Under the pieces are notes generated by a model. That model worked only from the letters and a program-made list of their open reading frames with translations, was not told the origin of the DNA and did not search any database. From Asaia prunellae JCM 25354 (GTDB lineage: Bacteria; Pseudomonadota; Alphaproteobacteria; Acetobacterales; Acetobacteraceae), in contig NZ_BAJV01000005.1 of assembly GCF_000613885.1 (NCBI RefSeq), forward strand, positions 62,001-126,000: DNA of 64,000 nt, written 5' to 3'. Position 1 is the first letter of the stretch, and each line of letters opens with the position of its first letter. Shown here in pieces: positions 6,820-36,378 of the stretch. Position numbers and translations under genes: made by a program.

Positions 6820-7725
6820 TCAGAGAGGGGGCGGTGTCTCTCCATCCGGGGGAGGTTTGCGACTGGTCAGCACATTGCCTGCCGATGCGCCTGCAATGCA
6901 GAGAACACCGAGCCAGCGGGCGACAGAAAGAGACTCACCCAGAAGCAACAGCCCCGAGATCGAACCGAGTACCGGTTCGAGGCTCAACAGGATACCAAGA
7001 TCACGCGGGCCAAGCTTGCGCATGGCCATCATGTCCAGAATATAGGGTACGGCAGAAGAAAGGATGGCTACTCCTACAGCGGCAATCCCCTGATGAGGAT
7101 GGGTGACAGCCGGTACAAGGGCCGGGAGCAACCAGGGGAGCAGCAGGATACCTGCGGTCGTCATACCCAGTGTTGTGGCCTGGGCAGCAGGCATGACCCG
7201 TCCGATTCTTGTACCGGTCAGGATATAGACCACCCAGCCAACGGCACTGATCAGGGCGGCGATAACCCCGATCGGGTCAAGGTGCCCTGCGACATGATCA
7301 GGGCGCAGAAGGAGATAAAGTCCTGAAACCACCATGCCTGCCCAGAGCAGGTCAAGCAGCCGACGTGAACCGATAAGGGCGAGTGAAAGCGGCCCCATGA
7401 ATTCAAAAGCCACCACCAGCCCCAGAGGCAAACGCACCAGAGCGACATAGAAGGCAAAATTCATGACGGCCATTGACGCGCCATAAGGCAGAAGCAGGCG
7501 CCACAGGCCAGGACGCAGGACAGAAGGGCCAGGCCGAACCACGATCAGAAGGATGACAGCAGCCAGGCCGACACGCAGACCGACCATACCCTCTGCGCCG
7601 AAGAGAGGAAAAAGCCCCTTGGCCAGCGCTGCGCCGATCTGGAAAGAGGAAATGCCTCCTATCAGAAGGGCCAGGCCGCCGAGCTTGTCGAGGCGTGTCG
7701 ACGTCGGATGATCGAGAGAAACCAT
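6820..7725 (-). CDS. EamA/DMT family exporter, RhtA-like
   Basis: Inner-membrane transporter of about 301 aa with roughly ten hydrophobic segments arranged as two EamA repeats, so a drug/metabolite transporter. The closest recognisable type is RhtA (threonine/homoserine exporter), judged from the N-terminal GISSFQIGAALAKGLFP and the region PLGLVVAFEFMGPL. The actual substrate cannot be read from sequence. The start ATG shares one base with the parE stop (TGATG), so translation may be coupled to parE. Confidence 0.75.
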   Translation of the reverse strand: MVSLDHPTSTRLDKLGGLALLIGGISSFQIGAALAKGLFPLFGAEGMVGLRVGLAAVILLIVVRPGPSVLRPGLWRLLLPYGASMAVMNFAFYVALVRLPLGLVVAFEFMGPLSLALIGSRRLLDLLWAGMVVSGLYLLLRPDHVAGHLDPIGVIAALISAVGWVVYILTGTRIGRVMPAAQATTLGMTTAGILLLPWLLPALVPAVTHPHQGIAAVGVAILSSAVPYILDMMAMRKLGPRDLGILLSLEPVLGSISGLLLLGESLSVARWLGVLCIAGASAGNVLTSRKPPPDGETPPPL

Positions 7726-9742
7726 CAGACGTCAAGCAGTTCGGCTGAACGCGCATGGTCCTGAATGAAACGAAAGCGCAGTTCCGGTTTGCGTCCCATG
7801 AGGCTTTCGACACGATCACTTGTCAGCGCGCGATCTTCCGCCGGAGTCACAACACGCAGGAGCGTGCGTCTGGCAGGGTCCATGGTTGTCTGTTTCAGAT
7901 CCTTGACCGGCATTTCGCCCAGCCCCTTGAATCGTGAGATTTCGACTTTCGCGCCTGTTTGAAATCGCGTTTGAGGCGGCGTACGCGATCATCGTCATCC
8001 ATGGCGTACACAGTCTTGGCGCCGTGGGTCAGGCGATAGAGGGGGGGCTGCGCCAGATAGAGATGTCCCTTGCGGACCAGTTCGGGCATTTCACGATAGA
8101 AAAAGGTCATGAGCAGTGAGGCGATATGGGCACCATCCACGTCAGCATCCGTCATGATGATCACGCGCCCATAACGCAGGCGTGTCAGATCAAAGGCTGA
8201 TCCTGAACCGCAGCCCAGTGCTTCCACCAGGTCACGCAGTTCCTGGTTGGCTTTGAGCTTGTCTGCTGTTGCCGAGGCAACGTTGAGAATTTTCCCGCGA
8301 AGCGGCAGCACAGCCTGTGTCTCGCGATCGCGCGCCTGACGGGCGGAACCTCCAGCCGAGTCGCCTTCGACCAGAAAAAGTTCGGTATCGGCAGCATTCT
8401 CGCGCGTGCAATCGGTCAGCTTGCCAGGCAGGCGCAGACGACGCGTGGCGCTCTTGCGTGGCGTGTCCTTGCTTTCCTTGCGACGCAGACGTTCTTCGGC
8501 GCGCTCAATGATAAAGGCCAGAAGATTATCAGCCTGGGCCGGGTTACCACCGAGCCAGTGATCCAGTCGGTCGCGCAGGGCGCCTTCCACGAGGCGGCTC
8601 GCTTCCTGCGTAGTCAGCTTTTCCTTTGTCTGTCCCTGAAAATGTGGGTCGCGAATGAAAACAGAGAGTTTGGCAGAAAGCGTTCCTAGGACATCCTCGG
8701 CCGTGATTGCCGCTGCCCGTTTGATACTGCGGCTCTCGCCCCAGGCACGAAACCCTTTGACAAGCGCAGTGCGGAACCCTGCCTCATGCGTGCCGCCTTG
8801 TGGTGTGGGGATGGTATTGCAGTATGATGTCATGCCCGACACGCCCTGCTCCAGAAACGCCACAGCCCATTCCAGCTTGCCACCAGTCCGTCCATCGGCC
8901 GCCTGAGGCAGTTCGGCCTCGCCGGACCAGAGGGGGCTCAGCAGGGCAGGTGTCGCGCCGAGTTCGGCATTCAGACTGTCGGCCAGACCATTGGGAAAAT
9001 GGATCGTCGCTTCAGTCGGGGTCTCGTCACCGCTTTTGATCAGTGTTGGCTCGACGCTCCAGCGAATGGTTACCCCACGAAAGAGAGCCGCCTTGGAGCA
9101 GCAGAGCCGATAAAGACGCTGTGGCGAAAAGCTCAGGCCGCCGAAAATCTCCGGGTCGGGTGCAAAGCGGATTGTTGTACCGCGCCTGTTGGGCGCATTG
9201 CCGATCTGCTGCAGAGGCGTGAGAGGCTTGCCGCGTGCATAGTCCTGTCGCCACAGAAGTTTCTCTCTCGCGACCTCGACCTCGAGCTTCTCGGACAAGG
9301 CATTGACCACAGAAGAACCGACGCCGTGCAATCCGCCCGACGTATCATAGGCTTTGCCTGAAAATTTTCCGCCCGCGTGAAGCGTTGTGAAGATCACTTC
9401 CAGCGCCGAGCGATTCCTGAATTTCGGATGAGCATCGACAGGAATACCGCGCCCGTTATCGCGCACCATAAGGAGTCTCGCTCCTTCCAAGGCCACATCA
9501 ATGACGCTGGCATGGCCTGCAACGGCCTCATCCATGGCATTGTCGAGAATCTCGGAAGCGAGATGGTGATAGGCGGTGTCGTCCGTACCACCAATATACA
9601 TGCCAGGGCGGCGGCGGACCGGCTCTAGTCCTTCAAGGACTTCGATCTGGTCGGCACCGTAATTTTCCGGCACCGGAGCCTGCGTCGTCTTGCGGGGGCG
9701 ACGTGCAGGCTTGTCATCACTCTTGAAGAGGTCGTCGTTCAT
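7725..9742 (-). CDS. parE: DNA topoisomerase IV subunit B (one frameshift)
   Basis: ATPase subunit of topoisomerase IV, which decatenates chromosomes with ParC. It has the GHKL ATPase motifs (EILDNAMDEA, DNGRGIPVD, GGLHGVGSSVVNAL), the TOPRIM segment with ELFLVEGDSAGGSA, and the acidic triad region IMTDADVDGAHI. The compact size (about 672 aa corrected) and the segment RRRPGMYIGGTDD fit ParE rather than GyrB. One G is missing from a GG pair near 7946, just before the conserved KGLGEMP segment; restoring it completes the C-terminus. ATG 9742 gives the usual N-terminus; an upstream in-frame start at 9778 is possible. Confidence 0.93.
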
Positions 9743-9805
9743 ATTGCGTTCTTGACGGCCTCGCCGGGGCGCCGTCAAGCACCCCGTGCAGGTAGGGGTC
9801 AGATT

Positions 9806-10390
9806 TTAGGCGCGGGTCTTGCGACGGGCGCGAGTTTTGCCGGTTGAACGGCTATGGGCGACAGCCGCCGGGGCCGAGCAGGTTTCGAAGGAGGCAGGCT
9901 GAATGATATCCTTGGCATCTGCATAATGGGCCAGATCGGCGCCGTCATCGAGAGCGTCTACCTCATCGAACATGGCAACGCGCTGCTGACAGAAAATCGT
10001 ACCAGCCTTCAGACCACCCTCAGACTGCACATTGGCGAGCTGTGTGATGTAGTCGTCATGCGCCTTCATGGCGTTGCGCCCGTAAGCCGATTTGAAATAG
10101 GTATTCAGGCGTTCCTCCTCGGCAGCAAGCTTCGGGCGGAACTTGGCTACAAATGAGTTATAGCGGTCCTGGGCGCTGCATGAGAGTGCGGTCACCATGA
10201 GTTCGCTTTTCAGTCCCTGCACGTTGAAAGCCTCATGCGCGGGAGATTCGCTGCATCCTGCCGCATAGGCAGCACCGGAAACGGCAAAGGTGCTGGCAAG
10301 CAAGGTGCAGGCAGTAAGGCGCGCAAACGGACGCAGGAGCGTTGCCGGGCTGAAAGCGACATCAGGGGACTCCACAAGGGCGAGTGACAA
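9806..10390 (-). CDS. secreted hypothetical protein
   Basis: About 194 aa, with a hydrophobic N-terminal segment ending GAAYAAG that reads as a signal peptide. The mature part has four Cys (after GAAYAAG, then ALSCSA, TIFCQQ and ETCSAP) that could form two disulfides, and a very basic C-terminal tail (KTRARRKTRA). I do not recognise a characterised family. The only start in frame that keeps the signal peptide is TTG at 10390, with no obvious ribosome binding site, so the true start is uncertain. The segment FNVQGLKSE resembles part of another secreted protein in this window (57934-58398). Confidence 0.55.
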   Translation of the reverse strand: MSLALVESPDVAFSPATLLRPFARLTACTLLASTFAVSGAAYAAGCSESPAHEAFNVQGLKSELMVTALSCSAQDRYNSFVAKFRPKLAAEEERLNTYFKSAYGRNAMKAHDDYITQLANVQSEGGLKAGTIFCQQRVAMFDEVDALDDGADLAHYADAKDIIQPASFETCSAPAAVAHSRSTGKTRARRKTRA

Positions 10391-10692
10391 GAGCGTTGCG
10401 CCGTCAGGGCGCGGGCAGGGCAGGGAAATGCCATTGGATTATGACGTAGCAATTACGGCGAGAAAATGCCCGCAGGCAAGGAAGAAGGCCATTTTCTCAA
10501 AAAAAAACCCGGACGTTCTTTTCTTTCGTTTCCATCGTCGGTTCCCCCTTCCGGTAGCGCTCTGCTTGCGCTAGGGCCATTGACGAATTTGTCTCCGGAG
10601 GCGTTGATCATGCCGGGAGACATCCGGTGTCGGGCCTGCTGGTATAACAAATAGCAGTATCGATTTTCGATGACATGTGATCAGTGGAGTTG
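10391..10692. other. intergenic region, divergent promoters
   Basis: About 300 bases between two divergent genes for exported proteins. It holds an A-run near 10498-10508 and a TTGACG hexamer near 10583 that could be a -35 element for the downstream lipoprotein. I see no convincing RNA gene or coding sequence; short open frames here have no family features. Confidence 0.3.
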
Positions 10693-11229
10693 ATGGTGCG
10701 ACTGCGTGGTTCTGCAATTACTCTCGTTTCGGCTCTGACTCTGGCGGCTTGCGCGCAACAGCCCGTCGTACAGCGCGTCGTTCCTCCCAACCCCTTCGGT
10801 TATCAGAAAGTCTCTGCTGTCTGTACGACGACTCCGGTCAAGACGGCGCCTGATGGCAGCATGAGCGTTGAAATGACGGTGCGCAGCGATGACGGTCTTT
10901 GTGCCCTCGCCGTGCAGAAGCCGGGCAACACCAATTACCGTTCTTTCGGCGTTGCCCCTGCGCCTCAGCATGGCAAGGCCTTCATGTATAATTTCGACGA
11001 TCACACCTACATTACCTACACACCGAGCACCGCCTATGCAGGCAAGGACAGCTTTACCGCCGTTCTGATTCCCGGCGGGACCGAAAAGCGCACCAGGCTG
11101 ACTGTCAATGCAACGGTTGATGCAACGGGCGTTACCATTGCGGCCCCTCCGAAGGCTACAGTCGCTCCGGCAGCCAGGAAACCTGTCGCCAAGCACACGA
11201 CGTCACGTCGCAAGACCACCAAGAAGTAG
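10693..11229 (+). CDS. small lipoprotein of unknown function
   Basis: About 178 aa. The N-terminus carries a lipoprotein signal (LVSALTLAACAQ) with the acylated Cys near residue 20. The central part (residues 40-140) is predicted beta-rich, with segments such as YITYTPSTAYAGKDSFTA that recall Ig-like/cadherin-type beta domains. The C-terminus is a basic Lys/Arg/Thr tail (TTSRRKTTKK), which could bind a polyanion or peptidoglycan. No specific family is recognised. GGAG precedes the ATG at 10693. A hairpin follows the stop. Confidence 0.6.
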   Translation: MVRLRGSAITLVSALTLAACAQQPVVQRVVPPNPFGYQKVSAVCTTTPVKTAPDGSMSVEMTVRSDDGLCALAVQKPGNTNYRSFGVAPAPQHGKAFMYNFDDHTYITYTPSTAYAGKDSFTAVLIPGGTEKRTRLTVNATVDATGVTIAAPPKATVAPAARKPVAKHTTSRRKTTKK

Positions 11230-11238
11230 GAATCCGTT

Positions 11239-11276
11239 TCTCCCCTGCTTCTGCGTCTGGCGAAGAAGCAGGGAGA
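11239..11276. terminator. bidirectional hairpin between convergent genes
   Basis: TCTCCCCTGCTTCT pairs with AGAAGCAGGGAGA with one bulged C. It lies between the ends of the lipoprotein gene and the Rrf2 gene, and there is no long T-tract. Confidence 0.5.
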
Positions 11277-11288
11277 CTGACTCGCATG

Positions 11289-11738
11289 TCAGATCGAGAA
11301 TGAAATAGGCTCGTGGACCGGTCGACGCAGTCCGGCAGCTTCTGCTCTCCTGACCATCTCCTCCAGGGTAAGCGTCGCCATCTCACCGCGTATCGTTTCA
11401 TCGAGGACCTGCCAGCAAGGCTCGATGACATTGCGAAACAGTGCACCCTGAGCGGCTTCTTCACTCGCTGTGTCTTCGGAGACAACGACACGCACAATCT
11501 CATCAAGCCCGATATCGCGTTGCGGTCGGCCCAGGCGATAGCCGCCACGTGGTCCACGGACACTTTCGAGAAGGCCGGAGCGCGACAGTGCCTGAAGCAG
11601 TGGTTCGATCCCCCTGCGGGCCAACCCGGCCCGCTCGGCAATATCGCCGCCGCTGACAAGGCTGGAGCGTCCGGCATGAAAGGCCACATCGACCATGATG
11701 ATCACAGCGATCATCGCCCTGTCCCTGCGAAGATACAT
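11289..11738 (-). CDS. Rrf2 family transcriptional regulator (CymR-like)
   Basis: Winged-helix DNA-binding repressor of about 149 aa. The helix-turn-helix (SGGDIAERAGLARRGIEPL) and the wing (VRGPRGGYRLGRP) are typical of Rrf2 proteins. IscR and NsrR hold an iron-sulfur cluster through three Cys around residues 90-110. Here only a single Cys (EPCWQV) is present, so this one probably does not carry a cluster. It is divergent from a cysteine synthase gene, as CymR is functionally linked to CysK in Firmicutes. Regulation of cysteine synthesis is therefore the best guess, by inference from context. GAGG precedes the ATG at 11738. Confidence 0.75.
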   Translation of the reverse strand: MYLRRDRAMIAVIIMVDVAFHAGRSSLVSGGDIAERAGLARRGIEPLLQALSRSGLLESVRGPRGGYRLGRPQRDIGLDEIVRVVVSEDTASEEAAQGALFRNVIEPCWQVLDETIRGEMATLTLEEMVRRAEAAGLRRPVHEPISFSI

Positions 11739-11765
11739 CCAGATTTTTCCTCAATGACAAATTAT

Positions 11766-11789
11766 CCGCAATATAGCAGTTATTGCCGG
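11766..11789. promoter_or_regulatory. possible operator between Rrf2 gene and cysK
   Basis: An imperfect inverted repeat (CCGCAATA ... TATTGCCGG) sits in the 112-base divergent gap between the Rrf2 gene and cysK. Rrf2 proteins bind dyad sites in such positions. It is not tested beyond the symmetry itself. Confidence 0.35.
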
Positions 11790-11850
11790 GAAAACACAGA
11801 TGCGCATCGCAGGAACGAACGCGCTGCCATATTGCAAGAAGGATTTGCCC

Positions 11851-12852
11851 ATGACGACCCCTACGGTGCCTGGTGAGAAAACGCGTACGGCGTCAGGCTA
11901 TGCCGCACCCAGAGGCCAGATTTTCGACTCGATCCTGCAAACCGTAGGGGGCACACCGCTTGTGGCTGTGCCGCGCCTGACCCAGGCTGACAAACTCAAG
12001 GCCCGGCTTTTGCTCAAGCTGGAGTTTTTTAACCCGCTGGGCTCTGTAAAGGATCGTATCGGCGTTGCCCTTATCCAGCAGGCAGAAGCACGGGGAGAGA
12101 TCACGCCGGGGCGCACGGTACTGGTAGAGCCGACCTCCGGTAACACGGGTATTTCCCTGGCATTTGCATCCGCTGCGCTTGGTTATCGGCTGATTGTCAC
12201 CATGCCGGAGAGCGCGTCGATCGAAAGACGCAAGATGTTGCGTCTGATGGATGCCCAGCTGGAACTGACTCCGGCGGCACGAGGAATGGCAGGGGCCATT
12301 CTGCGTGCTGAAGAGCTGGTGGCTTCTCTCCCTGATGCCTGGATGCCAAGTCAGTTTGATAATCAGGCCAATCCCGAGATCCATGCGCTAACGACAGCTG
12401 AGGAGCTATGGATCGATACGGATGGGACAGTGGATCTTGTCGTTGCCGGGGTGGGCACAGGGGGAACGTTGACCGGTATCGCGCGCACTCTCAGGCCGCG
12501 CAAACCATCAATGGAGTTCTGGGGCGTGGAACCTGCGGAAAGCGCGGTGCTGAATGGTGATGACCCGGGTCCGCACGGAATTCAGGGCATTGGCCCCGGT
12601 TTCTGTCCCAATACGCTCGATTCATCCCTGCTGGATGGTGTGCTTGCTGTCTCGGAACGTGATGCCATGGCGGCATCACGGCGTTGCGCGCGTATTGAAG
12701 GTATTCCCATCGGGATTTCTTCCGGAGCCGCGCTTCATGCGGCCCTGACGCTGGCACAACGCGATGAGAACGAGGGGAAGACGATCGTGTCAATCGTTCC
12801 GTCATTTGCCGAGCGCTATCTCTCGACATCTCTTTTCAACGGACTTGTCTAG
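11851..12852 (+). CDS. cysK: cysteine synthase A (O-acetylserine sulfhydrylase)
   Basis: PLP enzyme that makes L-cysteine from O-acetylserine and sulfide. The PLP lysine lies in NPLGSVKDRIG. The substrate loop is TSGNTGIS, the phosphate loop GTGGTLTG, and the segment GIGPGFCP matches the CysK family. The length, about 333 aa, is slightly over the usual 310-325 owing to an N-terminal extension. ATG 11851 is chosen because AAGGA lies 8 bases upstream. It is divergent from an Rrf2 regulator that probably controls it. Confidence 0.92.
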   Translation: MTTPTVPGEKTRTASGYAAPRGQIFDSILQTVGGTPLVAVPRLTQADKLKARLLLKLEFFNPLGSVKDRIGVALIQQAEARGEITPGRTVLVEPTSGNTGISLAFASAALGYRLIVTMPESASIERRKMLRLMDAQLELTPAARGMAGAILRAEELVASLPDAWMPSQFDNQANPEIHALTTAEELWIDTDGTVDLVVAGVGTGGTLTGIARTLRPRKPSMEFWGVEPAESAVLNGDDPGPHGIQGIGPGFCPNTLDSSLLDGVLAVSERDAMAASRRCARIEGIPIGISSGAALHAALTLAQRDENEGKTIVSIVPSFAERYLSTSLFNGLV

Positions 12853-12905
12853 AATCGGACCTGCTGGTCTGCGGAACGGGGGCGGTATCTCCCGTTCTGA
12901 CGGGT

Positions 12906-12926
12906 GGGAGAGGGATACCCTCTCCC
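12906..12926. terminator. hairpin after cysK
   Basis: A perfect 9-base stem (GGGAGAGGG / CCCTCTCCC) with a 3-base loop is followed by GTTAT. It lies between the convergent ends of cysK and the OmpA-like gene. Confidence 0.6.
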
Positions 12927-12935
12927 GTTATCCTG

Positions 12936-14147
12936 TCAGTTCAGAATAATCTCGACCCGGCGGTTCTGAGGTTCCCGCGTGTTCGGCCCTGTCTGGACCA
13001 GAGGGTTACTTTCGCCATAGCCCTTGGTTACGATCAGCCCGCCTGGCACACCATCACGGATCAACTCGGCGCGTACGGCATCAGCGCGACGGACCGACAG
13101 TTTCATGTTGTAGCTTTCACCGCGCGAACCGGGATGAGCGGCGCTGTTATCGGTGTAGCCATTGACCTCAATGCGCGTAAGCTGCGTATGGGTCGAGTTC
13201 TGGGCGGCAGTGCCGACAATGGCGCGAGCACGATCAGTCAGATCGGCACGATCCCAGTCAAAGAAGACGAGATAGCTGCGCGCCGGGGCAGGAGCAGGCG
13301 CTGTAACGACGGGCACACTGCGCGGTGGGGGAGGGGCCGGATTGAACTCGTAGCGCAGTCCCAGCAGCAGGGAATGATTGAAGTCGGTACGGGTAACACG
13401 GTTACCTTCCATGGCACCTGCAGGGCGCGGGGTGTCATACCCGCCTATGCTGCCATAGCCACTCGCGTAATGCCCGTTTGGTCCAAGCATCGAGTAGAAG
13501 CGATATTCGGTTGTAAATGACAGTCCGACAGCAAACGGAACCGGAAAGGAAAGACCAAAGATACCCTGATAGGCAAAATTGCTGGTCGTACCGCCGATTT
13601 TCTGGTTGAGATAGTTATTCGGAGCACGAACAGAGGCATTCATGGCCTGCCAGCCATAGCCTACACCGGCTCCGAAATAGGGATAGACCCAGTTCGCGCC
13701 GATATCCATGTCAAACAGGGCGTTGACCATTACGCCATATTGCTGCTGACGACCCCCGGCAGAAGACGGGAAATAGCTTGATTTGAACTGTTGCAGACGG
13801 TTGTTGCGGTAATTGCCTTCCACTTCAACACGAAAGCCGTTGCCCAGACCCCAGCCGACAGAACCAAGGCCGGTTACGCCCGCATCATAGTGGTCGCGCC
13901 CGCTGGGCAGGACCGGTGAAAGGCGTACGGTCTGATCCTGATTGAAACTTGCGCCACCTGCGCCTGCCGCATAAAGCCCTTTCACCACCTGAGCCTGTGC
14001 AGGAGCAGTCAGAAGGCAGAAGCCGCCCAGAGCGCTCAGGCCCAGGAGACTCCTGCGGAAAAAGCGAGAAAGCGATCCGACCGCCTGCGGGACATCGGAA
14101 AACGGGCGGTAAACGGCTTCACCGCGCGTTCGGTGCTCCAGGGTCAT
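12936..14147 (-). CDS. OmpA-family outer membrane protein
   Basis: About 403 aa. A long n-region and hydrophobic signal (LGLSALGGFCLLTAPAQAQ) is followed by an eight-stranded beta-barrel domain, a Pro-rich linker (NPAPPPPRSVPV), and a C-terminal OmpA peptidoglycan-binding domain. The last shows FDWDRADLT, NGYTDNSAAH and TREPQNRRVEI, including the Asp and Arg that bind meso-diaminopimelate. It should tether the outer membrane to the wall. ATG 14147 is preferred because GGAGAAGA lies just upstream; the frame stays open further up, but without family similarity. The roughly 230 bases upstream look like an untranslated leader. Confidence 0.88.
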   Translation of the reverse strand: MTLEHRTRGEAVYRPFSDVPQAVGSLSRFFRRSLLGLSALGGFCLLTAPAQAQVVKGLYAAGAGGASFNQDQTVRLSPVLPSGRDHYDAGVTGLGSVGWGLGNGFRVEVEGNYRNNRLQQFKSSYFPSSAGGRQQQYGVMVNALFDMDIGANWVYPYFGAGVGYGWQAMNASVRAPNNYLNQKIGGTTSNFAYQGIFGLSFPVPFAVGLSFTTEYRFYSMLGPNGHYASGYGSIGGYDTPRPAGAMEGNRVTRTDFNHSLLLGLRYEFNPAPPPPRSVPVVTAPAPAPARSYLVFFDWDRADLTDRARAIVGTAAQNSTHTQLTRIEVNGYTDNSAAHPGSRGESYNMKLSVRRADAVRAELIRDGVPGGLIVTKGYGESNPLVQTGPNTREPQNRRVEIILN

Positions 14148-32178: not shown

Positions 32179-34314
32179 CTATGATACCCGACCCTGTGGA
32201 ATATATTCCTGCAGAATACCGCCTGGCTGAAAGACGTAGATCCGGTCTGCATGCGCGATGGTGGCCGGACGATGGGCGACGATAATCTGGGTGATCCGCA
32301 TTTCCCGTAAGGCCGAGGCAACATGCGCCTCTGTCGTCTCGTCCAGATGACTGGTTGCTTCATCGAGGAACAGGATATCGGGTTTGCGATAAAGGGCGCG
32401 GGCCAGAATAATACGTTGTTTTTGTCCTCCCGAGAGGCCGGCACCCATATCGCCAATCAGCGTATCAAACCCCATAGGCATATGCTCGATATCCTGCAGG
32501 ATAGCTGCATGGGTGGCACATTGCCTCAGCCAGTTTTCATCAGGTTCTTCTGCAAAACCGCTGATATTTTCAGCAATTGAACCCGAAAACAGCCCATCAT
32601 CCTGCAAGACTCCGGCTATCCGGTTGCGATAGCCCTCAAGGGTCAGCGCTGTGATGTCGTTACCATCAAGCGTGATCCGGCCACTCGGGATTTCCATCAG
32701 TCCCATGAGTGCTTTGAGAAAAGTGGTTTTGCCGCAGCCTGACGGTCCGACGATAGCAATAATGCGTCCTGCTGGAACGCTCAGCGACACATTCTGGAAA
32801 ATCCAGGGATCATGGGCTCCATATCGTGCAGAAAGATCTTCGCAGGTGAGAGCACCTCTTGCTGAGCCGGGTGTCCCGCTGACAGGACTGGACGGAGCTT
32901 CCTGAGGCTCTGTAGCTGTCATGACAATATCAGACAGACGTTCAGTCTGAACGCTGAGCATGCGGATCTGGAAAGCGCTGTTGATCAGGCTGCCAATCCG
33001 TCCTGCAAACTGATCCTTGTAGGAGAGAAAGGCCACCAGCATACCTACGGTCATGGCTCCTTTCATGACAGCAAAGGCGCCAAGCACCATCATGATCAGG
33101 CGATCTGCCCCGAAAATCAGTTCAGCAAGACGTCCGTAGACAAGGTCATAACGTTGTATGCGCAGCCGGACATTGATGCTGTCTATGATAAGGTTAAGCC
33201 AAGATGCGCGTCGTCGTTCGCGTAACCCCAGCAATTTGACGCTGGCCATGTTGCGGATGGTCTCGATGAAATGGCTTTGCTGACGTGCGTCGAAGACAAT
33301 CTGCTCTTCATTTGCCTCGCGATAAAGACGATAGGTAAACAGACGCAAGGCAACATCAAGAGCGACTGCTACGAAAGCAACGGCGCCCAGCCATCCGCCA
33401 TAGATGAACAGCATGATGCCCATGCCTACAGCCATCAAACCATCCATGATCGTCTGGACCATATCGGTTGTCATGGTTTTCTGGATTGAGGCAATCGCGT
33501 TGAAGCGAGAAAGAACGTCGCCCACATGGCGTTTTGTAAAATAATCGAGCGGTAGGCGTGACAGATGGTTGAACAACCCTGCACTCCACTGCAGCCCGAC
33601 ACGGGTGCCAAGAATGAGCACCGACCATTGTCGCACACAGGAGATCAGCAACTGCAAAAGGAGGAGGAGCGCCACTCCGGAAGCGATGGTAATCAACAAT
33701 TCATGGTCGGATGTCACCACGACTTCATCGATGATCACCTGTGAAACCATCGGCATGATAATGGCAATAGCTTCCAGCCCAAGAGAAAGAACCCCAAGCA
33801 TCAGAAGCGACGAACGCAGTCCCGAGATATGCTGAAACAGGTCACGCAGACGCAGGGTTTCCCGTGCATCTTCTTTGCGGAAATTCTCGTTTGGAAAGAC
33901 TTCGAGCGCTATGCCGGTAAATTCACGTGAAACGACATCGAGACCGAGTACGCGTCGACCGAAGGCGGGATCGTGGATGACAATTTTGTTGCCGGAGACT
34001 TTTGTCAGAACGACAAAATGGGTCAGGCTCCAGTGCAGGATGCATGGCAGACGCAGACCGGACAGCTCATCCAGATCAAGACGTACGGCGCGGGTTGCAA
34101 GCCCGACCCGGTCAGCCGTCATCATCAGATCTTTCAGTGTGCTACCCTTGATTGAAAGCGAGAAACGCCGTCTCAGTGTGGGCAGATCGATGCGATTGCC
34201 GTGATGACCCATGATCATGGCCAGGCAGGCCATGCCGCATTCAGCAGCTTCAACCTGCAGGATCACCGGTGTTTTTGACTGAAAGCCGAACTCAATCGCG
34301 TTAAGCGCTTTCAT
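32179..34314 (-). CDS. peptidase-containing (C39) bacteriocin ABC exporter
   Basis: About 711 aa with three parts: an N-terminal C39 cysteine peptidase (residues 1-130), a six-helix transmembrane domain (about 170-440), and an ATPase domain (about 500-711). The catalytic residues are visible: Gln20 and Cys26 in QVEAAECGMACL, His99 in SLTHFVVL and Asp115 in IHDPAFG. The ATPase has VGPSGCGKTT, LSGGQKQR and LFLDEATSHLD. Such proteins cut the leader of double-glycine peptides and export the mature part. The start overlaps the stop of the HlyD-like gene by 4 bases, and a matching peptide gene lies at 35734-36030. Confidence 0.93.
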   Translation of the reverse strand: MKALNAIEFGFQSKTPVILQVEAAECGMACLAMIMGHHGNRIDLPTLRRRFSLSIKGSTLKDLMMTADRVGLATRAVRLDLDELSGLRLPCILHWSLTHFVVLTKVSGNKIVIHDPAFGRRVLGLDVVSREFTGIALEVFPNENFRKEDARETLRLRDLFQHISGLRSSLLMLGVLSLGLEAIAIIMPMVSQVIIDEVVVTSDHELLITIASGVALLLLLQLLISCVRQWSVLILGTRVGLQWSAGLFNHLSRLPLDYFTKRHVGDVLSRFNAIASIQKTMTTDMVQTIMDGLMAVGMGIMLFIYGGWLGAVAFVAVALDVALRLFTYRLYREANEEQIVFDARQQSHFIETIRNMASVKLLGLRERRRASWLNLIIDSINVRLRIQRYDLVYGRLAELIFGADRLIMMVLGAFAVMKGAMTVGMLVAFLSYKDQFAGRIGSLINSAFQIRMLSVQTERLSDIVMTATEPQEAPSSPVSGTPGSARGALTCEDLSARYGAHDPWIFQNVSLSVPAGRIIAIVGPSGCGKTTFLKALMGLMEIPSGRITLDGNDITALTLEGYRNRIAGVLQDDGLFSGSIAENISGFAEEPDENWLRQCATHAAILQDIEHMPMGFDTLIGDMGAGLSGGQKQRIILARALYRKPDILFLDEATSHLDETTEAHVASALREMRITQIIVAHRPATIAHADRIYVFQPGGILQEYIPQGRVS

Positions 34315-35626
34315 CGTCCACGCACCATTCCACCACTGACCATGTAGATATCGTCACGAACGCTGATCAGAGGGTCGAAAAGCCATTCGTAGAGTTTCCG
34401 TGTGTCAATGGCGATATCTGCCTGAACCGCCATTCCTGCCTGTAGTGGCTTTCGTTTTGAATAAGCCATGACATAGGGCTTATCGGGCAGGATACGTATG
34501 CGATACAGGTTCTGGGCGACGTCGTTACCCTGTCTGACAGGTGCGGGAGGCGAACCGCTATTGGCTGTTCCGCTGATTTCAGTCACTGAAACAGGAGCCC
34601 GCGTAACTTCGACCACTGTGCCGCGGTAAAGGCCAAAGCGTTGATAGGGGTAGGCGTCATAGCGAAGCAGAACCGGTTCGCCTTCGTGTAAGAAGCCGAT
34701 CGAAGCACTGCTGACGAACAGCATCGCTTCAAGCGTATGTCCTGTAGGCAGAAGTGTGGCGAGTGTCTGTCCGGCCTGGACATGCTGACCGCGATTGCTC
34801 CGAATGGCGGTTAGAATGCCATCATCAGGAGCGATGACTACATTGCTTCGCTGGGCCTCGCTTTCGATGGTTTGTTGATCGATTTGGGCAATCTGTTTGT
34901 CGAGGTCGTTCAGATCGTGAGCCTGTTGACTGTCATAGCGTATGAGCCTGGTTGTAAGATCGGCTATCTGGCCTTCGATACCGGAGAGATTTTGCAGGAA
35001 CTGTGCATGACTGCTGAGTAGCTGTGCATAAGTATAGAGCTGGTTCTGAAACTGTGTCTCTGTGACGATATGCTCGGTCTTTGCGGCCTGCATTTTTTTC
35101 ATTGCCGATTCCACGACGGGCAGGACCTTGTTGTCATTATCGATCTGGTGCCGAATTTCTTCATGCTGCTGGGTGAGAAAGCGGATCTGCGTCGCGATAG
35201 ATGTTTTTTCGATCGGGCCATCCTTGATCCTGAGTGCTTTCTGTTTTCTCAGAATCGCACTTTGCTGACGAAGCTGGTTGAGTACCCGTTCCTGCGTCGG
35301 ACCAGAGCTGGATGTGGATTCGATGTTGATGACATACAGCACGTCACCTTTATGGACGTGTCTGCCCTCCTCGGCATTCTGGCAGATATGACGCCTGTGG
35401 AATTGACGGCGATTGTGATGAGGCCTGAAGGCGGTGCCATATATCCTGTAGCATGAACACGCCGTGTATAGACGCCGAGTGCTACATATAGCGCCAATGC
35501 AAGACACAGGATGAGTGTGGCAAAGGCAACAAGACGGAAGGAGAGGGGCTGGATAACTTGAACCCGGCCAAGCCAGGAATGACGTCGAGCGTCGATTGAC
35601 TCCTGTCTGAAAAGATCAGAAGACAT
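34311..35626 (-). CDS. HlyD-family membrane fusion protein of the peptide exporter (one frameshift)
   Basis: Periplasmic adaptor linking the inner-membrane ABC exporter to an outer-membrane channel. A single N-terminal transmembrane helix (ATLILCLALALYVALGVYT) is followed by a lipoyl-like half, a long coiled coil (about residues 110-230, Gln-rich) and a beta-barrel domain. The C-terminal RGR end fits CvaA/NHLM-type adaptors. A G is missing from a GG pair near 35376, where the frame moves from the ISARM segment to EEGRHVHKGD; corrected length is about 438 aa. No TolC-like gene is in the window, so a shared outer-membrane channel is assumed. Confidence 0.87.
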
Positions 35627-35687
35627 CAGAGGTAGGCATTCGGGTCAAAAATCCGGGACTCACGCATAGATATGGATGACTGAAATA

Positions 35688-35727
35688 CCGGTCTGGCAGG
35701 CTGACAATGCCTGACCCGCCAGACCGG
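35688..35727 (-). terminator. hairpin after peptide gene, possible attenuator
   Basis: A perfect 10-base inverted repeat (CCGGTCTGGC / GCCAGACCGG) lies just after the peptide gene stop and before the adaptor gene. On the minus strand it is followed by TATTTC, a weak tail. Partial termination here would give more peptide mRNA than exporter mRNA, as in many bacteriocin operons. Confidence 0.5.
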
Positions 35728-35733
35728 AACCTG

Positions 35734-36030
35734 TCAGGCCTGATTGGCCTTGGCTGCTGCGATGATCCCAGTAATACCAAGCCCTATTGTCTGAACGGCT
35801 TGTGGAACGCCGTTCAGGTTGCGTGATGCAAGGGTATCGACAACTTCGCCAATACCGGTTCCGAGTGTAGTGGCTGGAGTAAGCGCGCTCGCCTTCGGTG
35901 CAGAACCGTTTATGGCGGTGCTTGCCCAGTCGACGATGTTGCCGATTGCACTTCCAAGCTGAGAGCCAAAATTGCTGAAAAAGCCAGCGCCGCTGACGGA
36001 GTCAATTTCGACGATATTCAATTCGCGCAT
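35734..36030 (-). CDS. double-glycine-type bacteriocin/microcin precursor
   Basis: Precursor of 98 aa. The 15-residue leader MRELNIVEIDSVSGA fits the double-glycine rule at every key position: Leu -12, Glu -8, Ile -7, Val -4, Gly -2, Ala -1. Cleavage after Ala15 by the C39 exporter would release about 83 residues starting GFFSNFG. The mature part has no Cys, is rich in Gly, Ala, Ile and Thr, and has repeated small-xxx-small patterns (GSQLGSAIG, GTGIGEVV, GLGITGII) that suit membrane-inserting helices. AAAGG precedes the ATG. No immunity gene is evident. Activity against other bacteria is inferred from leader and context. Confidence 0.8.
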   Translation of the reverse strand: MRELNIVEIDSVSGAGFFSNFGSQLGSAIGNIVDWASTAINGSAPKASALTPATTLGTGIGEVVDTLASRNLNGVPQAVQTIGLGITGIIAAAKANQA

Positions 36031-36378
36031 GGTTTTGACCTTTCGTTCTGAGTTTGAGTCCCTATCCTGACCCAGTTATTTATAATGTTTGTTAAACACG
36101 AATAACTCCACTGATAATTTTTCAATATTTTGCTACTATTATTTTTATATAAAATTATTAGTTATATAGATTGATGAATAGAAGAAAACTGTTCTGTTTT
36201 CCGGAGATCTGACAAGTATCAGGTCCTGATGCCTCCCCCGCTTGGAAAAGAGCAGATCATTGCCTATCAGGGCTGACCCGGATCGTGGTATTTTTTTGAC
36301 GGGATAAATACAGATCTGCTTCGCGATCATCGACTATCGCAAGCCGGTTTCTGTCTTCTCCGGTTTCAGGCAGGTGGA
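36031..36378. promoter_or_regulatory. AT-rich divergent regulatory region
   Basis: About 350 bases between the peptide operon and the LysE gene. The part from about 36060 to 36180 is strikingly AT-rich compared with its surroundings (for example TATTTTTATATAAAATTATTAG) and probably holds the peptide operon promoter. Several TATAAT-like hexamers are present, so I do not assign one. A 61-codon reverse open frame at 36145-36330 shows no coding features. Confidence 0.4.

What the first reader, a model, noticed from the sequence alone, without database searches (positions are those of the whole stretch)
32179..36030. Compact double-glycine peptide secretion operon (precursor, adaptor, C39 exporter)
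Seen: a 98-residue precursor, an HlyD-like adaptor and a C39-ABC exporter lie in this order on one strand, the last two overlapping by 4 bases. The exporter keeps its catalytic Cys26, His99 and Asp115. The precursor leader matches the canonical double-glycine positions (Leu -12, Glu -8, Ile -7, Val -4, Gly -2, Ala -1). Established: such exporters cleave and export class II bacteriocins and microcins. Inference: this is a Gram-negative bacteriocin system that I cannot match to any named one.
Basis: partly seen in the sequence, partly recalled or inferred. Interest (0 to 1): 0.78.

Follow-up and report, generated by a model that had tools for sequence, protein, structure and literature searches.

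The report
Broken glycine-zipper peptide export operon
An acetic acid bacterium (Asaia) carries a small operon for making and exporting a glycine-zipper peptide, probably a weapon against neighbouring bacteria, but in this copy the middle gene of the export machine is out of frame, so it may not work.

Summary
In 30 of 30 related operons examined it is one frame. Selection still looks purifying (dN/dS about 0.06), so the break is recent or an assembly error. The precursor (98 aa, leader ending GA) belongs to a family with two LGxxIGxxVD boxes, with strong matches in 12 of 397 sampled genomes of the bacterial family: Asaia, one Acetobacter and one unnamed genus with up to ten copies per genome. 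All 17 genomes with any profile hit also have the exporter. A relative near its own adaptor and exporter sits on a Klebsiella plasmid from a fruit fly. The peptide meets the sequence criteria published for Cdz-like glycine-zipper bacteriocins and weakly resembles class II microcins. No immunity gene was recognised. Best reading: a Cdz-like / class II microcin-type system with, in this genome, a damaged exporter. New member of a known kind; killing is inferred, not shown.

The parts
35734..36030 (-). Precursor peptide, 98 aa; leader residues 1-15 (ends GA), predicted mature part 83 aa from Gly16
   Evidence: dN/dS 0.056 against A. siamensis
35986..36030 (-). Double-glycine leader MRELNIVEIDSVSGA
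   Evidence: M1, R2, E8, G14 invariant in 23 aligned precursors
35929..35958 (-). Glycine-zipper box 1, LGSAIGNIVD (residues 25-34), overlapping GSQLGSAIG (GxxxGxxxG, residues 22-30)
35836..35865 (-). Glycine-zipper box 2, LGTGIGEVVD (residues 56-65)
   Evidence: with box 1 the best internal repeat, 0 of 1000 shuffles as good
35627..35733 (-). Intercistronic gap with a strong stem-loop after the precursor stop (transcript stabiliser or partial terminator; inferred)
   Evidence: -39.7 kcal/mol, z -2.9; equivalents in A. siamensis z -3.9 and G149 z -4.0
35249..35626 (-). Adaptor, N-terminal piece (about 83 true residues, with a hydrophobic stretch, then an out-of-frame tail)
   Evidence: 81.9% identical to A. 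siamensis adaptor over residues 1-83
34311..35507 (-). Adaptor, C-terminal piece; HlyD-like from about residue 43 of this ORF; what lies before is out-of-frame reading
   Evidence: HlyD_3 E=7.6e-12, type_I_hlyD E=1.2e-32, below its cut-off; 84% identical to A. siamensis over residues 43-398
32179..34314 (-). C39 peptidase / ABC exporter, 711 aa, intact, catalytic Cys26, His99, Asp115
36031..36378 (.). Divergent intergenic region between precursor and LysE gene; ribosome-binding site before the precursor ATG conserved, rest poorly conserved; holds one 61-aa ORF (36145-36330 -), not seen to be conserved

Best explanation
A Cdz-like / class II microcin-type operon. Shown by sequence: a short precursor with a double-glycine leader, a stem-loop, an HlyD-type adaptor in two frames and an intact C39 exporter. 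Inferred for intact relatives: the C39 domain cuts after Gly14-Ala15, exporter, adaptor and a TolC-type channel encoded elsewhere carry the 83-residue glycine-zipper peptide out, and its GxxxG helices insert into the membrane of neighbouring cells or assemble on the producer surface, as CdzC does. Inferred for this genome: the break, if real, leaves an anchor fragment without most of its periplasmic part, so export is probably off although precursor and exporter are intact. The operon is probably ancestral in Asaia and was lost in several species (inference).
For: Leader and triad. Cdz-like sequence criteria of PMC5380434: length, leader ending and uninterrupted glycine zipper met. All 17 of 397 genomes with a precursor-profile hit also have the exporter, which is in 71 of 397. 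MccV model matches 10 of 23 members at E<=0.1, best 1.4e-4; lactococcin G-alpha 5 of 23, best 2e-5. Plasmid relative near its own adaptor and exporter in Klebsiella michiganensis. TolC-family proteins in the genome: 25 PF02321 stretches, 24 over cut-off. Break seen only in the window: 30 of 30 other operons have one-frame adaptors; no second adaptor of this type in the held genome, only a 26% relative. dN/dS 0.056 precursor, 0.054 exporter, 0.063 adaptor C-part against A. siamensis. Exporter 90/85% and msbA-like neighbour 93/90% identical to A. siamensis/G149; site empty in 6 of 9 genus genomes.
Against: No immunity gene recognised; class II microcins and Cdz have one. Window precursor far below the MccV cut-off (14.7 against 27 bits) and without any NCBIfam match. 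Some family members match unrelated glycine-zipper models as well (Gly-zipper_Omp 3 of 23; YiaD 3 of 23), so composition may explain part of the bacteriocin matches. The mature peptide evolves slowly among Asaia (dN/dS 0.056 and 0.129), whereas the Cdz authors report substantial cargo variation. No activity, expression or secretion data. If the break is an assembly error, the 'off' part is wrong.
Confidence: 0.6

Rival explanations
1. The adaptor break is a one-position assembly or sequencing error and the operon is complete and working in this strain.
For: Selection on all three genes looks undiminished; a single gap column separates the window from three relatives in the DNA alignment; the genome is a draft of 38 contigs.
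Against: No long homopolymer at the gap, the usual place of such errors (seen; that this is the usual place is recalled). No reads to check.
Confidence: 0.45
2. The peptides are not weapons but surface-assembling or signalling peptides (for example adhesive, amyloid-like material), exported by the same machine.
For: No immunity gene recognised, although one genome of unnamed genus g41 has ten strong precursor hits, five in tandem with no ORF of 45 aa or more wholly in the gaps. Slow evolution of the mature part in Asaia. CdzC aggregates on the cell surface (PMC5380434). A Hint-domain protein cluster lies near 8 related operons, Hint found in 4 of 4 members scanned.
Against: Weak matches to microcin V and lactococcin G-alpha models. 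The Cdz precedent is lethal. Immunity genes are hard to recognise (PMC9746304). One operon pair in g41 has mature dN/dS 0.32, so slow evolution is not general.
Confidence: 0.22
3. Programmed -1 frameshifting joins the two adaptor pieces.
For: The two frames overlap and the offset is of the -1 kind (from the coordinates).
Against: No heptamer of the form XXXYYYN in 35249-35626 on the gene strand (one search printed none); 30 of 30 relatives have one frame.
Confidence: 0.03

Closest known systems
Cdz system (CdzABCDI) of Caulobacter crescentus and Cdz-like systems (PMC5380434: abstract, sections 13, 18, 32 and passages seen)
   Same: Small glycine-zipper peptide, leader ending G[GAS], adaptor plus ABC exporter without a TolC gene in the cluster, alphaproteobacterial; most Cdz-like systems have a single peptide
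   Different: One peptide instead of CdzC+CdzD; no immunity gene recognised; adaptor out of frame; zipper holds polar residues, where CdzC/D have only small hydrophobic ones. No direct sequence comparison with CdzC/D was made
Class II microcins, microcin V type (PMC9746304: passages seen)
   Same: Double-glycine precursor, C39 exporter with the catalytic triad, adaptor family, TolC-family proteins in the genome
   Different: No immunity gene recognised; MccV model score far below cut-off; different bacterial class
Class IIb two-peptide bacteriocins (lactococcin G / enterocin 1071)
   Same: GxxxG motifs; 5 of 23 family members match the alpha-peptide model weakly
   Different: One peptide; the window's own precursor has no NCBIfam match; Gram-negative three-part exporter
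Solved exporter 4ry2, 'ABC-type bacteriocin transporter' (PCAT1; that name is recalled)
   Same: Aligns over residues 11-702, E=7.6e-94, catalytic motifs shared
   Different: From a Gram-positive host, no outer-membrane route (recalled)

Membership tests
Cdz-like glycine-zipper systems | Peptide of 60-151 residues | tested here: met
   98 aa
Cdz-like glycine-zipper systems | Leader ending in G[G/A/S] | tested here: met
   ends GA
Cdz-like glycine-zipper systems | Glycine zipper not interrupted by proline or charged residue | tested here: met
   GSQLGSAIG at residues 22-30; 17 of 23 family members have such a run
Cdz-like glycine-zipper systems | Type I secretion genes within 10 kb | tested here: inconclusive
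   Exporter intact, adaptor present but out of frame in this copy
[quoted passage not shown]
   C-terminus AAAKANQA; judged by eye
Cdz-like glycine-zipper systems | Immunity protein (CdzI in Caulobacter) | tested here: inconclusive
   None recognised; the Cdz authors also found them hard to identify
Cdz-like glycine-zipper systems | Contact-dependent killing | not testable with these tools
   needs culture work
Class II microcins | C39 exporter with Cys/His/Asp triad | tested here: met
   Cys26, His99, Asp115
Class II microcins | Membrane fusion protein | tested here: inconclusive
   HlyD family, but in two frames
Class II microcins | TolC-type channel in the genome | tested here: met
   25 PF02321 stretches in own genome, 24 over cut-off; which one serves is unknown
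Class II microcins | Cognate immunity gene next to the precursor | tested here: inconclusive
   Neighbours are LysE and msbA-like genes, present also in the 6 genus genomes without the operon; the only other free ORFs are 61 and 35 aa, in a region not conserved in two relatives
Class II microcins | Over the Pfam MccV cut-off | tested here: not met
   14.7 bits against 27
NHLP/NHLM peptide export | Exporter over the TIGR03796 cut-off | tested here: not met
   495 against 853 bits
Class IIb two-peptide bacteriocins | Two adjacent precursor genes | tested here: not met
   One family precursor in the own genome

The most novel reading that the evidence does not exclude
A family of glycine-zipper peptides in acetic acid bacteria that have one exporter, scattered precursor genes and no immunity genes, and that serve as self-assembling surface or adhesion peptides rather than toxins. 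The genome with ten strong precursor hits, five in tandem with nothing but short gaps between, would then hold a repertoire of surface peptides, and the Asaia operon a minimal one-peptide form.
Probability: 0.2. Interest if true: 0.65.

Novelty: new member of a known kind. Interest (0 to 1): 0.42.

Why it matters
It places a Cdz-like / microcin-type peptide family in acetic acid bacteria, a group in which one published BAGEL4 screen (22 Bombella genomes) reported no bacteriocins and a Commensalibacter study reported only a bacteriocin exporter gene in all genomes (PMC9147383 and PMC10149009, passages seen). Precursors without recognised immunity genes make the question 'toxin or surface peptide?' directly testable. 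The window copy also shows that a neat operon read by eye can hide a frame break.

Tried and rejected
One recent gain at the site: not favoured, because a tree of the neighbouring msbA-like gene puts occupied G149 with empty G259 and G085 (97/98 support), apart from the other two occupied genomes; the deeper forks are weak (30/19) and it is one gene. Loss in several species, or exchange at the site, fits as well or better. The operon stretch has G+C 0.52-0.54, most flanking windows 0.55-0.62, some lower (0.48 just upstream), which would fit an older acquisition. Matches between intergenic DNA of empty and occupied sites: none at E<=0.05. Programmed frameshift: no XXXYYYN heptamer. Pattern scan: 5 promoter-like sites, 3.8 expected; 7 terminator-like, 3.7 expected. 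PDB search with the precursor profile: 0 matches at E<=1. PHROGs and PADLOC were not searched.

The precursor's structure could not be predicted: the machine was busy at each of six tries.

Literature (open-licence full texts only; listings seen unless stated): searches (19 papers, 10 listed; 226, 10 listed; 29, 15 listed; class II microcin + Acetobacteraceae: 0; 0; 88, 12 listed; 13, 12 listed; 370, 12 listed; Asaia + bacteriocin: 40, 15 listed), 80 (Acetobacteraceae + glycine zipper: 0). Passages or sections were seen in five papers: PMC5380434, PMC10149009, PMC9147383, PMC9746304, PMC7690452. No listed title reports such a system in Asaia; most papers were not opened, so this is weak evidence of absence.

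Full report
What is there. The window is from an Asaia species: its genome shares the genus label g1 with G192, whose contig has the same length (294,913) as A. siamensis record NZ_BMCH01000005.1. The precursor is 98 aa with a typical double-glycine leader; a pattern made after seeing it fits 1 of 2275 ATG starts in the window. The exporter is intact, with C39, membrane and ATPase domains and the catalytic residues in place.

The adaptor is broken or mis-assembled. Its first ~83 residues are in one frame (35249-35626) and the rest in another (34311-35507); the start of the latter ORF is out-of-frame reading. In 30 of 30 other operons examined the adaptor is one frame of 430-471 aa. These come from 28 of the 71 exporter-bearing genomes, one with two operons, plus A. 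fallax; L138 is the same contig as L032 and was dropped. No second adaptor of this type was found in the held, 95% complete genome, only a 26% relative. dN/dS between window and A. siamensis is 0.056 for the precursor, 0.054 for the exporter and 0.063 for the adaptor C-part, so there is no sign of long decay; against G149 two of the three values could not be computed for saturation.

The precursor family. tblastn found it in 15 of 397 genomes of the bacterial family at E<=0.01, the own genome included, several weak. A profile of 23 members found 17 of 397 at E<=0.001: 12 strong (three Asaia with the own genome, one Acetobacter G030, eight of unnamed genus g41) and five weak (3e-6 to 9e-4). In a class-wide sample it hit 2 of 385, the own genome and one g41 genome. 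g31 is taken as Acetobacter because G316 has a contig of the length of the A. orleanensis record. g41 has no name in the tools; Commensalibacter is a guess from genome size. Across the 23 members M1, R2, E8, G14, G26, G30, G57 and G61 are invariant; they were picked by similarity and leader, so part of this is built in. A loose box pattern occurs at least twice in 20 of 23. In the window precursor the two boxes are the best internal repeat and 0 of 1000 shuffles did as well; in 11 of 23 members more than 5% of shuffles did as well, so the repeat is clear only in part of the family.

Cargo and exporter go together: 17 of 17 genomes with a precursor-profile hit have the exporter at E<=1e-100, against 71 of 397 overall; related genomes are not independent. 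In some genomes precursors lie far from the exporter (G030, G214, G299, and several in G246, which has eleven profile hits, ten strong). Related exporters sit next to other peptides with the same leader type, such as Cys-rich ones in A. fallax and G374/G295; in A. orleanensis I saw no leader peptide upstream. The exporter therefore seems to serve a leader, not one cargo (inference).

A relative outside the family. A 72-aa peptide with this leader type and both boxes lies on plasmid NZ_CP048111.1 of Klebsiella michiganensis from Bactrocera dorsalis, about 2.4 kb before an HlyD gene and a C39 exporter, with transposase genes around. It was the only plasmid record with a match of 72,556. Its exporter is 42% identical to the window's.

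Operon anatomy. A strong stem-loop follows the precursor stop in the window (z -2.9), A. siamensis (-3.9) and G149 (-4.0). Long hairpins were seen by eye in four of five further loci folded without shuffles; L045 has none of that strength. The ribosome-binding site is conserved among three Asaia; the rest of the upstream region is not.

Site history. LysE and an msbA-like ABC gene flank the operon in 3 of 9 genus genomes and are direct neighbours, 97-268 bp apart, in the other 6. One of those six, G259, has a different exporter (53%) elsewhere. Exporter and neighbour diverge in step; the neighbour-gene tree does not group the three occupied genomes.

Immunity. Around the window operon the only free ORFs of 30 aa or more are 61 and 35 aa long. 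Neighbours were clustered in 33 loci, 32 of them distinct. No small non-precursor gene near the operon recurs across genera. Within g41 a 168-183 aa gene on the other strand follows the exporter in 7 loci, beside a 457-490 aa membrane protein; one member scanned had no Pfam match, so it cannot be excluded as an accessory. An 84-aa gene shared by three g41 loci lies about 5 kb off. Other recurring neighbours: a 472-589 aa protein in 8 loci, with a Hint domain in 4 of 4 scanned, and a 454-473 aa protein in 5 loci, an outer membrane efflux (TolC-type) protein in the 1 scanned. Immunity proteins diverge fast, so this is weak negative evidence.

Comparison with the known. The peptide meets the length, leader and zipper criteria published for Cdz-like proteins and shares parts with class II microcins, but misses the MccV cut-off and has no recognised immunity gene. 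I file it as a probable new member of the Cdz-like / class II microcin kind by how it is built, not by tested activity.

Noticed in passing
L048 (G246), 9720-11963: Five family precursors in tandem upstream of adaptor and exporter; no ORF of 45 aa or more lies wholly in the gaps; more copies elsewhere in the same genome.
   Followed up: partly
L155 (NZ_CP048111.1), 7001-12989: Klebsiella michiganensis plasmid from a fruit fly carries a two-box glycine-zipper peptide near adaptor and C39 exporter genes, among transposases.
   Followed up: partly
L033, 927-2666, and seven other loci: A 472-589 aa protein (Hint domain in 4 of 4 scanned) lies upstream of related export operons, on the opposite strand in seven of the eight.
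   Followed up: partly
L042, 10915-11466, and six other g41 loci: A 168-183 aa protein of no known family follows the exporter on the other strand.
   Followed up: partly
L033, about 6854: The A. fallax exporter changes frame near its C-terminal end in the tblastn match.
   Followed up: no
L045 11034-11303 and L057 12831-13100: Histidine-rich 89-aa peptide with a double-glycine-like leader a few kb from the operon.
   Followed up: no
L151, L152 (unnamed genus g33): Larger glycine-rich peptides (136-146 aa) with MREL leaders beside related exporters.
   Followed up: no
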